From Caldilineaceae bacterium (lineage in GTDB: Bacteria > Chloroflexota > Anaerolineae > Caldilineales > Caldilineaceae), in the NCBI GenBank assembly GCA_022842065.1, contig JALHQH010000049.1:1-64000 (forward strand): 64,000 nt of DNA, written 5' to 3'. Of this stretch, positions 30,513-34,542 are shown piece after piece; positions within the stretch are counted from its first letter, which is position 1; each line of letters begins with the position of its first letter. A program made the position numbers and the translations under genes. The notes below the pieces were generated by a model, which saw only the letters and a program-made list of their open reading frames with translations, made no database searches and was not told the DNA's origin.

Positions 30513-32209
30513 CTAACACTCGCTATAGCCACAAACATGACATTTGCGGCAACCCTCAACGTTAAGGAAACTCGCCTCGCCACAGTCGGGGCAGATATCG
30601 CCAATCGGGCGTTGGGCAATCGGCAGGGCCAACTGTTCGGCATGGAGTTCTTCGCGGCTGGGCGGCAACTCGCTCAGATGCTCGGCCAAGACCTGGGCCA
30701 CGCCATCCGGCAGGCTGCGGACGCGATTGGCCCCAAAGCCCAATGGGCGGCCACCACCAATGCCCGCCATCTCATCCATCACCCAGCGCAGGCGCTCAGA
30801 GGGCGGCAAACTGGCCGGCATCCGTAGCACCAGGCTAATCAACCGCCCCATCGCTTCGCTGACGGCAGAGACTTCACTGCCGGCCTTACCCACATTGAGA
30901 AAGACCTCGAAGGGTTCGCTGCGCTCGTCACTGTTGACGGTAATATAGGCAGAGCCAAGCGGTGTCTCTTTGCGATAAGTGCTGCCCATGAGCCGCTTGG
31001 GCCGCGGGCGTTTGGTCACCACCGGTTTGACATCATCGACGACAATTTGGCCATTCACCGGTGCGGTATGACCATTCACATGGCCATTGGTATGGCCATT
31101 TTGATAGCCATTACTGCCATTGAGCAGACCCTCACTCTGGGCCGCGGGCGCTTCGCCTTCGCTCTTTTTATCTTTTGTGGCCTTCGTCTCCAATACCACT
31201 TGCTGCCGGCTGCCAGTGACATAGACGGTCAACCCCTTGCACCCCAGCTCCCACGCCAGGCGGTAGGCCTTGGCGACCTCTTCTTCCGTGGCCCCTTCCG
31301 GAAAATTACAGGTCTTCGAAATGCTGTTATCAACGAAAGCCTGAATCGCCGCTTGCATGCGCACATGCTCTTCCGCCGTAATATCATTGCTCACGACAAA
31401 GGTATTACGCAAGTGCGCCGGGGCATCGGCAAAATCTTGAATTGAGCCATAAGCGGCGGCATGTTGCTTGAGCGCAGCCTTGGCCCCGCTACTCAGGTCC
31501 AGGCGATCGAGCACGGCATCAAAGAGCGGGCTGGTATAGTTCAACTCGACATCTTTGTCGCCATCCTTGAAATGGCGCACATAGCCCAAGGCAAAGACCG
31601 GTTCACAGCCATAACCTTCACAACCACAGACAGTGGCGATGGTGCCAGTCGGCGCAACGGTCGTCTGGGCCGCGTTGCGAATACCGTGGCGACGGATGCC
31701 CTCTACAATCGCGTCCCAATCCAGCTTGGGGCGGGCCCAATCTTGGATAAAGGGGACGACGGAATGGGGCGGCAGCCACTTCATGCCCCCCGGCTGCTGA
31801 TCATCATAGATACTGCCGGCAAAGGCCAGGAACGGGGCGCGTTCCTCGGCCAGTTCAATGCTCTTGGCCATGCAGTGATAGCGCACAAACTCCATAATCT
31901 GCCCGGCAAACTCCTGGCCTTCCAGGCTGCCATAACGAATGCCCAGCTTGTACATCATGTCACCCAACCCCATGATGCCCAGGCCAATGCGGCGGGCACG
32001 ATGGGCGGCTGCGGCCACGGCCGGCACCACCGGCACATAGGCATTGGCCGAGACCACATTATCCAGGAAGTGGGTGCTCTCATAGACCGAGCGCCGCAGC
32101 AATTCCCAGTCCACGACCGCATCGCCTTCTTCATCAATCGTGACATGCTCATTCAAGTTGATCGAACCAAGACAACAATTTTCGTACGGGCCAAGCCACT
32201 GTTCCCCAC
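30513..32209 (-). CDS. nrdJ: B12-dependent (class II) ribonucleotide reductase, 3' exon
   Basis: C-terminal ~565 residues of NrdJ. The exon begins at 32209 with the last two bases of the codon for Cys319, then [18 protein letters not shown]. Glu321 completes the N-x-C-x-E catalytic motif of ribonucleotide reductases. It continues through the barrel ([34 protein letters not shown]) and an Asn/Gly/His-rich linker. The C-terminal part ends with two CxxC motifs ([19 protein letters not shown]), the usual zinc/thiol tail of class II enzymes. Read without splicing, an ATG at 32243 opens the same frame inside the intron, so an unspliced reading would look like a separate gene. Together with the 5' exon it makes an 883-aa protein. 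Confidence 0.93.
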
Positions 32210-32479
32210 CCTTATGTTCACTTCGATGAAGTAATACCACCAAAGCTACAACTCAGCTCACGCCGAGGTTCGGACTATCGCACCACCCCATTATGTTTAG
32301 ATTGGGGTGTCCTTTCACTTAGTCTCTCACGCTACCCAGTGTCATTAACGATGCTCAGTTTATGTACACCTGCTTGCGCCCTGTTGCCCTGCCGCGGTGG
32401 CTAGAATCGCGATGAGGGTTCCAAGTCAATCAGAAAGGATTTTCCATTCGGGATTTCGCCCGATGGCCGCATGGACTTT
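32210..32479 (-). ncRNA. Group I self-splicing intron in nrdJ
   Basis: 270 nt, no ORF. Several group I features can be read on the - strand. The 5' exon ends in U (32480) and the intron ends in G (32210). P1: exon CCGU pairs with GCGG at 32470-32467 with a U.G pair at the splice site. P10: CCAT at 32474-32471 pairs with exon-2 GTGG. The P7 halves GAGACTA (within 32328-32320) and TAGTCC (32277-32272) flank P8 (CACCCC/GGGGTG). P9 is the hairpin CTCGGC-GTGA-GCTGAG with a GNRA loop. Splicing restores TGT (Cys319). The intron begins with TAA in frame, so unspliced mRNA would give only 318 residues. Confidence 0.93.
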
Positions 32480-33434
<955 letters not shown>

Positions 33435-33600: not shown

Positions 33601-33656
33601 ACACTGCATGTGGCATTAAGTTTAGTTTCGACGCTTAAGTCTTAATGCCTCGGGCG

Positions 33657-33688
33657 AATAGGTTCATGAGCATGCTCATGAACCTATT
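33657..33688. repeat. 32-bp perfect palindrome covering the YjzC-like stop codon
   Basis: AATAGGTTCATGAGCA (33657-33672) is followed directly by its complement (33673-33688), with a T run to 33692 on the + strand. The stop codon at 33684-33686 lies inside it. Confidence 0.8.
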
Positions 33689-33872
33689 TTTTATGCTTCG
33701 TTGGATCAACGAGCACATATCCCTGTCCTGGTTTTGACGTAGGTGGTAGCGGTTTACCCTGCACAGATGTCACTTCTGCACCAAGCATTCCACCACGTGG
33801 TCCTACCACAGCATATTGTCCTGATGTTGGTGTTGTCACACCAGGCTTCAAAACTACCTTCAGCTTTGACAT
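33684..33872 (-). CDS. Small YjzC-like protein
   Basis: A 62-aa protein starting MSKLKVVLKPGV, with the core SGQYAVVGPRGG and EVTSVQGKPLPPTSKPGQGYVLVDPTKHKK. This resembles the short YjzC family of Firmicutes and other bacteria, whose function is unknown. AAGGAGG lies 8 nt before the ATG, one of the best ribosome-binding sites in the window, so the frame is surely expressed. A 15-bp hairpin sits directly upstream of it. Confidence 0.7.
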   Translation of the reverse strand: MSKLKVVLKPGVTTPTSGQYAVVGPRGGMLGAEVTSVQGKPLPPTSKPGQGYVLVDPTKHKK

Positions 33873-34095: not shown

Positions 34096-34542
34096 TTAAC
34101 TTCGCCCCATCAGTCGATCAATCTCAATCTGCAACTCATTCAAATCGTTCATATCCAAATAAACGCTGGCAAAACGGATATAAGCGACCTGGTCAAGGGG
34201 GGCCAGATGATCCAATACCATGTTGCCGATCACACTGCTGTGTACTTCGTTTTTGCCGATGGTATGGAGCGATTCGACAATCTGATCAACAATGTGCTCC
34301 AAGGTGTCGCTACTAATGGGCCGCTTGGTCGCAGCCGTCTGAATGCCCGAAAGCAATTTCTGCCGATCAAAGGGCTCGCGCCGATTATCACTTTTGATCA
34401 CCAGCAGATTCGCGGCAACATGTTCATAGGTCGTAAAGCGTTGACCACATTCTTCGCACTGTCGCCGCCGCCGGATTGCATCGCCGGTATCACGCGTGTC
34501 AACGACCTTGTGTTGATCATGGTTACAATGTGGACATCGCAT
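34096..34542 (-). CDS. nrdR: Transcriptional repressor NrdR
   Basis: An ATP/dATP-responsive zinc-ribbon repressor of ribonucleotide reductase genes. The 148-aa protein starts [33 protein letters not shown], giving the four Cys of the zinc ribbon. The ATP-cone domain follows with [17 protein letters not shown]. It lies between ftsZ and nrdJ on one strand, an informative context because its usual target is the nrd gene next to it. It is separated from ftsZ by terminators, so it has its own promoter. Confidence 0.97.

What the first reader, a model, noticed from the sequence alone, without database searches (positions are those of the whole stretch)
32210..32479. A 270-nt group I intron splits the catalytic radical-cysteine codon of B12-dependent ribonucleotide reductase
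The two halves of nrdJ are separated by 270 nt with no ORF. The intron has U at the 5' exon end, G at its 3' end, a P1 pairing (CCGU/GCGG), a P10 pairing (CCAU with exon-2 GUGG), P7 halves GACUA/UAGUC around P8, and a GNRA-capped P9. It interrupts the first/second base of the TGT codon for Cys319 in the NPCGE motif. By the family pattern N-x-C-x-E, that Cys is the thiyl-radical residue. The intron begins with an in-frame stop, so no active enzyme can be made without splicing. Group I introns are known in phage and cyanobacterial RNR genes, but insertion within the catalytic Cys codon of a class II gene is striking. It makes splicing a strict switch over dNTP synthesis.
Basis: partly seen in the sequence, partly recalled or inferred. 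Interest (0 to 1): 0.88.

Follow-up and report, generated by a model that had tools for sequence, protein, structure and literature searches.

The report
Phage-type intron in catalytic cysteine codon
A bacterium's gene for making DNA building blocks is cut, inside the codon of its key catalytic residue, by a short RNA element that looks self-splicing and whose relatives sit at the same spot in phage genes, so this codon looks like a shared landing site for selfish elements.

Summary
A 270-nt insert (32210-32479, minus strand) splits nrdJ after the first base of the TGT codon for Cys319, which aligns with Cys322 of Thermotoga NrdJ. The joined exons give a full-length B12-dependent ribonucleotide reductase.

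Rfam's group I model does not see the insert, but it is a group I intron. A homologue sits at the same place in a related genome. With 33 viral relatives, helices P3, P4, P6, P7 and P8 pair in 95.0% of cells, with 139 compensatory cells (0 of 500 shuffles as high).

The main new result is its kin. The intron belongs to a phage-dominated clade. In Roseobacter phage CRP-118, and at 24 distinct viral reductase exon ends with homology on both sides, such an intron begins at this same codon; some encode GIY-YIG endonucleases. Five of 80 related nrdJ genes carry inteins at the adjoining Pro|Cys boundary. The codon thus looks like a shared address for mobile elements; the Chloroflexota copy lacks an endonuclease gene.

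Splicing was not tested. The 'strict switch' idea has no evidence. Group I introns in reductase genes are known, including a cyanobacterial one whose site I could not check.

The parts
32480..33434 (-). nrdJ exon 1 (318 codons plus first base T of the Cys319 codon); RNR all-alpha domain and first part of the barrel domain
   Evidence: PF00317 and PF02867 1-211
32210..32479 (-). group I intron, 270 nt, no endonuclease gene; TAA formed by exon T plus first two intron bases; last base G
30513..32209 (-). nrdJ exon 2 (starts GT of the TGT codon, then GEQW...); rest of barrel, TSCPD domain
   Evidence: PF02867 219-523, PF12637
32480..32483 (-). 5' exon side of P1 (CCGU)
32467..32474 (-). internal guide CCAUGCGG: GCGG pairs CCGU (P1, U.G at the splice site), CCAU pairs GUGG of exon 2 (P10)
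   Evidence: same guide in G442 and in viral contig L365
32444..32466 (-). P2 hairpin
   Evidence: 2 compensatory pairs between window and G442
32433..32439 (-). P3 5' strand UCCUUUC
   Evidence: 7 of 7 pairs have changes on both sides across 35 sequences
32422..32427 (-). P4 5' strand GACUUG (one A.G mismatch with its partner)
   Evidence: 4 of 5 counted pairs with changes on both sides, 88.0% of cells paired
32387..32418 (-). P5 hairpin CCCU...AGGG
   Evidence: its pairs do not vary between window and G442 and it was not counted
32378..32383 (-). P4 3' strand CAGGGC
32331..32377 (-). P6 (GC/GC) with P6a
   Evidence: 2 of 2 P6 pairs have changes on both sides; P6a pairs do not vary
32320..32326 (-). 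P7 5' strand G(A)GACUA, guanosine-binding site by homology
   Evidence: 4 of 6 pairs with changes on both sides, 100% paired (P7 was part of the selection)
32310..32316 (-). P3 3' strand GAAAGGA (P3/P7 pseudoknot)
32284..32309 (-). P8 hairpin CACCCC...GGGGUG
   Evidence: 4 of 4 counted pairs with changes on both sides
32272..32277 (-). P7 3' strand UAGUCC
32252..32267 (-). P9 hairpin CUCGGC[GUGA]GCUGAG with GNRA loop
   Evidence: 2 compensatory pairs and 1 broken pair against G442, which has GAAA in the loop
32218..32234 (-). further 3' hairpin UUACUUC[AUC]GAAGUGA, absent from G442
34096..34542 (-). nrdR, regulator of RNR genes, upstream of nrdJ
   Evidence: TIGR00244 179.9 bits

Best explanation
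The insert is a group I intron that removes itself from the nrdJ transcript by the usual guanosine-initiated two-step reaction (inferred from the conserved core, not tested here). The guide CCAUGCGG holds both exons, cutting after the U of CCGU and joining it to GUGGGG, which restores the TGT codon of the catalytic cysteine. The TAA at the 5' splice site stops ribosomes before they enter the ribozyme (inferred). It belongs to a phage-dominated clade of group I introns, a number of which sit at this same codon of phage RNR genes, some with a GIY-YIG endonuclease. The chromosomal copies in Caldilineaceae-like Chloroflexota most likely descend from that mobile pool and have lost, or never had, the endonuclease gene (inferred). 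In the cell the intron is probably near-neutral so long as splicing is efficient.
For: Exact exon join and domain completion. G442 homologue with the same guide, boundaries and codon phase. 35-sequence alignment: 95.0% of cells paired against 77.1% shuffled, 139 cells changed on both sides against 33.9, 0 of 500 shuffles as high, slid controls 38-46%; P3 and P4 were not in the search model. Clade: model R1, built from window and G442, gives 73 matches at E<=0.1 in 80 viral loci (of 120 stretches that matched a P7 pattern), matches CRP-118 and 12 of 12 RNR-site loci that I picked for a test. Same codon: CRP-118; 24 distinct viral exon ends with TAA at the Cys codon and RNR homology on both sides, plus 9 with homology on one side. 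Intronless CRP-403 is 93.6% identical over the 236-aa query and contiguous. GIY-YIG ORFs in L391 and L412. 24 further nrdJ N-terminal proteins among the 120 listed end exactly at ...NP.
Against: Rfam RF00028 matches none of the 15 loci tried: window, G442's L107, 9 viral loci (one again alone) and 4 RNR-site loci. The fold energy is no better than shuffles (z -0.93). No RNA data. The intron tree does not resolve which phage introns are nearest to the Chloroflexota pair, and its bootstrap had not settled, so the phage-to-bacterium direction is inferred. J8/7 (GUGCGA) differs from the textbook forms I recall. Among sampled genomes only G442 shows the intron (1 of 46; in 396 of the class 1 strong and 2 weak matches). 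Of the 24 other Chloroflexota-like protein ends only G442's was seen as DNA.
Confidence: 0.93

Rival explanations
1. A real group I intron that has been co-opted as a regulatory switch, so that splicing efficiency sets dNTP supply.
For: The only PF02867 (class I/II large subunit) gene found in G442 is the split nrdJ (class III was not searched), so splicing may gate an essential enzyme there. PMC11878797 (passages read) raises an 'on-switch' idea for phage introns.
Against: The intron is present, absent, or replaced by inteins in close relatives, as expected of a mobile element rather than a fixed switch. Rfam showed no known regulatory RNA in the region; no other search for a sensor was made.
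Confidence: 0.08
2. A bacterial group I intron of the tRNA-intron type (IC3) that reached nrdJ without any link to phages.
For: By recall, P6, J6/6a, J6/7 and P7 resemble the Azoarcus and Anabaena tRNA introns. Other Caldilineales genomes have Rfam-detected group I introns, three of the ten loci with tRNA-Thr genes nearby.
Against: R1 matches none of those 10 loci at E<=1 but matches phage introns strongly, and phage introns share codon, phase and, in L365, the guide.
Confidence: 0.06
3. A disrupted pseudogene or assembly error rather than a spliced gene.
For: No transcript evidence here; Rfam negative.
Against: Both exons intact; the same structure in another genome and in an isolate phage; strong covariation.
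Confidence: 0.01
4. Two separately translated half-proteins, or ribosome bypassing of the insert, make the enzyme without RNA splicing.
For: A TTG-started ORF begins inside the insert and runs into exon 2 (32243-30513).
Against: That ORF reads ...HKGGEQW, without the catalytic cysteine; neither half encodes it before splicing. The insert has a covarying ribozyme core.
Confidence: 0.01

Closest known systems
Intron in the split RNR gene of Roseobacter phage CRP-118 (OR420741.1, gp44/gp45) and viral contig L387, whose core is identical
   Same: Same intron clade, same codon and phase (CCG T|AA...), class II-type RNR, no endonuclease ORF in this short form
   Different: Different RNR subtype and host; longer P1 (AAAUCCGU/GCGGAUUU), no room for P2. 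The annotation shown lists two RNR pieces and no intron feature.
Group I intron with an IS element in a cyanobacterial ribonucleotide reductase gene (Meng et al. 2007; paper not held, known here only through text and citations in PMC12702839 and PMC3984707)
   Same: Group I intron in a bacterial RNR gene, B12-type by my reading of the review
   Different: Insertion site and subgroup could not be checked; the present one has no IS element
Group I introns of class I RNR genes in phages and Bacillus (Twort, SPbeta, nrdE; PMC3984707 and PMC3653736, passages read)
   Same: RNR genes, conserved sites, some with HNH endonucleases
   Different: Class I genes; by recall subgroup IA with P7.1/P7.2, for which there is no room here (3 nt between P7 and P3)
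Inteins at the Pro|Cys boundary of nrdJ in related Chloroflexota (L020, L021, L023, L034, L074)
   Same: Same spot, one base upstream; a LAGLIDADG domain in L034
   Different: Protein splicing, not RNA; unrelated element
Rfam RF00028 Intron_gpI
   Same: Group I architecture
   Different: The model matches none of the 15 loci of this clade that were tried

Membership tests
Group I intron | Conserved core with P3/P7 pseudoknot, P4-P6 and P8 | tested here: met
   5 helices, 24 pairs, 21 with changes on both sides, 95.0% of cells paired, 0 of 500 shuffles as high; P5 was not counted
Group I intron | U at the 5' exon end in a U.G pair of P1; G as last intron base | tested here: met
   also L365 and CRP-118
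Group I intron | Guide pairing with both exons (P1 and P10) | tested here: met
   8-bp guide; same in G442
Group I intron | Match to the Rfam group I covariance model | tested here: not met
   the model also misses the 14 other loci of this covarying clade that were tried, so I take it as a limit of the model
Group I intron | GTP-dependent self-splicing in vitro | not testable with these tools
   no wet experiment possible
Subgroup IC3 | Subgroup signature by comparison with reference introns | not tested
   resemblance to Azoarcus and Anabaena introns is from memory only
Class II RNR (NrdJ) | Spliced protein passes the curated class II model | tested here: met
   TIGR02504 641.1 bits against 399.95; it scores below the cut-off of the narrower PRK08665 model (850.9 against 961)
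Class II RNR (NrdJ) | Split codon encodes the active-site Cys | tested here: met
   aligned to residue 322 of 1xjk; radical role recalled
Mobile (homing) intron | Own endonuclease gene | tested here: not met
   no ORF of 80 aa or more contained in the window intron; GIY-YIG present in viral kin L391 and L412
Phage intron clade defined here | Shared core found by a model of window and G442 | tested here: met
   tree

The most novel reading that the evidence does not exclude
A clade of group I introns that Rfam's model does not see treats the first base of the catalytic-cysteine codon of class II RNRs as a common address across phages and Chloroflexota chromosomes. Several independent arrivals occurred, and inteins contest the same Pro-Cys spot. 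In the bacteria, which seem to have a single RNR, the endonuclease-free intron may persist because it occupies the site and so shields an essential gene from phage and intein endonucleases that cut the empty codon.
Probability: 0.3. Interest if true: 0.82.

Novelty: new member of a known kind. Interest (0 to 1): 0.6.

Why it matters
One codon, for the residue that starts ribonucleotide reduction, is hit by RNA introns in phages and in bacterial chromosomes and, one base away, by inteins in the bacteria's relatives. This gives a clean natural system for asking why splicing elements choose active sites, whether an endonuclease-free intron protects its host gene, and how introns pass between phages and bacteria. 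It also shows a practical gap: the Rfam group I model missed every locus of this clade that was tried, and affected genes can be annotated as split, as in CRP-118, or appear as truncated proteins, as with the fragments ending at ...NP here.

Tried and rejected
Rfam at gathering and at E<=10 gave, in the insert's region, only implausible matches (mir-144, CC0196, SNORD113) and was set aside as blind to this clade. Minimum free energy folding did not separate the insert from shuffles. DNA similarity of the intron against phages (2 records), plasmids (4 records), 10 related genomes and 400 of the phylum (3 with a match at E<=0.01) gave only short matches, taken as chance; the one to MW202674.1 proved later to lie in a real clade member. 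Short nrdJ frames in the class sample were looked at in 10 fetched regions: in G728, G561, G462, G006 and G307 the alignment runs past residue 319 to the contig end; G547's contig ends at residue 319 itself, so that case is undecided; G540, G653 and G656 are contiguous or nearly so; only G442 has the intron. The table is capped, and 177 of its 396 genomes gave no match. Weak R1 matches in G453 and G475 were not followed beyond. An intein was rejected for the window because each frame of the insert holds stops. A first count of RNR-site introns failed through a wrong BLAST option and was redone. Two tries at the intron tree stopped on a name error, because CRP-118's core is identical to L387's and had been merged.

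Rows dropped before counts: R1 was run on 80 of the 120 viral stretches. In one search, 110 of 160 places had no RNR homology. In the exon tree (quick method), proteins lacking the NP motif, with under 265 aa before it, or uninterrupted and numbered beyond P0060 were left out; four 'intron' rows (P0035, P0037, P0075, P0113) have long branches, and P0023 sits beside an uninterrupted row. In the intron tree, 20 of 38 viral RNR-site rows gave no core by my pattern (several hold long introns). L198 is labelled 'other' there although one search shows RNR homology in it.

Full report
What is there. The minus strand of the window carries nrdJ in two pieces, 33434-32480 and 32209-30513, separated by 270 nt. 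Joined, they give an 883-aa protein without internal stops. Each half matches complementary parts of the RNR barrel domain (PF02867 positions 1-211 and 219-523). The joined protein passes the class II model TIGR02504 at 641.1 bits (cut-off 399.95); neither half does (292.0 and 321.2). The break falls after the first base of the TGT codon for Cys319. That residue aligns with Cys322 of Thermotoga maritima NrdJ (1xjk), which I recall as the thiyl-radical cysteine. Read from exon 1, the insert starts with TAA. A TTG-started frame that enters exon 2 from inside the insert reads ...HKGGEQW and lacks the cysteine. nrdR lies upstream.

Is it more than chance. Rfam finds no group I intron, even at E<=10 on 291 nt, and the fold energy is ordinary. 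The decisive evidence is comparative. In a related genome, G442, nrdJ is broken at the same base by a 223-nt insert with the same guide and 3' end. Between the two inserts, P2, P3 and P9 each carry two compensatory pairs; overall 98.0% of cells pair (6 of 500 shuffles reach this), against 36-45% when the partner strands are slid. The two pairs that fail lie in P8, where the aligner placed gaps, and at the tip of P9.

The intron's family. A covariance model (R1) of the P6-P9 part of these two sequences found only G442 in the 46 genomes of its order and, beyond G442, two weak matches in 396 genomes of the class. I aligned 33 of these with the window and G442 from P3 to P9. P3, P4, P6, P7 and P8 pair in 95.0% of cells (shuffled mean 77.1), with 139 cells changed on both sides (33.9) and 21 of 24 pairs changed on both sides. 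No shuffle of 500 reached any of the five measures, and sliding partners drops pairing to 38-46%. P7 was part of the selection, but P3 and P4 were in neither the pattern's paired letters nor the model as pairs, so their covariation is independent of how the sequences were found. This is the P3/P7 pseudoknot core of a group I intron. Rfam's RF00028 matched none of the 15 loci of this clade that I gave it: the window, L107 of G442, 9 viral loci (L154 again alone), and CRP-118 with three RNR-site contigs. Of 7 viral loci whose neighbouring ORFs I tested, 5 match phage head or tail proteins, and endonuclease families appear beside three. The named phage MW202674.1 carries the intron within a P22-type coat protein gene. 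The viral label of the contigs is that of the collection; I did not verify it.

The same codon in phages. Roseobacter phage CRP-118 has its RNR annotated as two pieces. Its first piece ends ...GTNP with CCG T|AA, the clade intron follows (36.9 bits), and the frame resumes as GC TCA GAA, giving Cys-Ser-Glu: the same codon and phase as in the window. Its relative CRP-403 is uninterrupted there (93.6% identical over the 236-aa query). Of these, 50 have RNR homology at the site, 39 of them with distinct exon ends. 24 have TAA at the Cys codon with RNR homology on both sides, 9 have TAA with homology on one side, 5 loci keep a TGC/TGT codon and so appear to have the intron slightly downstream, and one entry is a second overlapping match in L365. 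In 17 of the 39 the alignment to an intact RNR ends on the residue just before the cysteine; in several others it stops short or runs over. The scan required the Asn-Pro codons, so it cannot say what share of the clade lives here, and 3' splice sites were read only for CRP-118 and L365. The 12 RNR-site loci that I chose for a test all match R1 at E<=0.01. L365 has the same guide as the Chloroflexota copies (UCCAUGCGG) and also carries LAGLIDADG and Hom_end domains upstream in the same frame. Some RNR-site introns are about 770 nt long and hold a GIY-YIG ORF (L391 and L412; a similar-looking ORF in L417); an ORF in L369 had no Pfam match.

The same spot in bacteria. Of 30 nrdJ loci from the order of G001, one has the intron (L107), seven are interrupted there by inteins (six labelled; L108 is from the genome of L034) and 22 run through that point. 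A protein search with exon 1 lists 120 of 6800 relatives; 25 of them, the window's own included, end exactly at ...NP. On a tree of 72 exon-1 proteins the 26 intron rows need 6 changes of state (shuffled mean 21.4, 0 of 500 as low), mostly in one part of the tree but interleaved with inteins and empty sites (quick method). On the intron tree (52 rows) window and G442 pair together (98/92) inside the phage-dominated set, and the RNR-site label needs 7 changes (shuffled mean 15.0), at least 5 forced by well-supported branches. This suggests several arrivals at the codon, but the nearest phage kin is unresolved.

How it works. Shown: boundaries, codon phase, guide pairing with both exons, covarying core, terminal G, and that the only PF02867 gene found in G442 is this split one (five relatives also have one each; class III not searched). 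Inferred: guanosine-initiated self-splicing; the TAA stopping ribosomes at the splice site (an idea in PMC3984707, passage read); a phage origin of the chromosomal copies; endonuclease loss. A shielding role is a hypothesis. Regulation is unsupported.

Against the known. Group I introns in RNR genes are well known in phages and bacteria (PMC3984707, PMC3653736, passages), and group I introns and inteins prefer conserved sites (PMC2814812, passages). Introns and inteins of the small RNR subunit lie mainly near its metal and radical residues (PMC8772380, passage). A cyanobacterial RNR gene has a group I intron (Meng et al. 2007, known here only through PMC12702839 and PMC3984707); its site could not be checked. 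Ten literature searches showed, in the listings and passages that I saw, no description of an intron in the catalytic-cysteine codon of class II RNR or of this clade; most subscription papers are not in that library. I file it as a new member of a known kind, with an unusual, repeatedly used address.

Noticed in passing
L268 (OR420741.1) 2480-2881: The second RNR piece of phage CRP-118 (gp45) is annotated to start about 230 nt (76 codons) downstream of the exon 2 start inferred here; the stretch CSEIILRPYQFCNLTE... is left out of the annotation.
   Followed up: yes
L269 (MN988507.1) 1070-1770: Rhizobium phage RHph_N3_13 has its RNR split about a dozen residues downstream of the catalytic Cys (QFC|NL) by another group I-like intron with an ORF annotated as 'decoy of host sigma factor'; weak R1 match (18.2 bits).
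   Followed up: partly
L394, L443, L473, L482, L503: Viral RNR genes where the Cys codon is intact and the clade intron appears to lie a few bases downstream, a second nearby insertion point.
   Followed up: no
L021 1386-2712 and L023 2859-4061: A second intein site in nrdJ (GG|C... to HN|T, about residue 210) in two Chloroflexota; the reading frame of the one in L023 is broken by frame changes.
   Followed up: no
L023 4424-4885: A short intein (about 155 aa, apparently without an endonuclease part) at the NP|C site.
   Followed up: no
L094-L103: Ten Rfam group I matches (E<=0.001, two over the cut-off) in 7 of 46 Caldilineales genomes, three of the loci with tRNA-Thr genes; R1 does not match them.
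   Followed up: partly
L168, L217, L164, L152: Viral contigs with three or four clade intron matches each within a few kb.
   Followed up: no
window 33655-33695: An inverted repeat (AATAGGTTCATGAGCATGCTCATGAACCTATTTTTT) upstream of nrdJ, with a similar hairpin upstream of nrdJ in G442 (L107); terminator-like.
   Followed up: no
L265 and L266: Weak R1 matches (28.1, 20.7 and 25.1 bits) in two other genomes of the class, host genes not identified.
   Followed up: no
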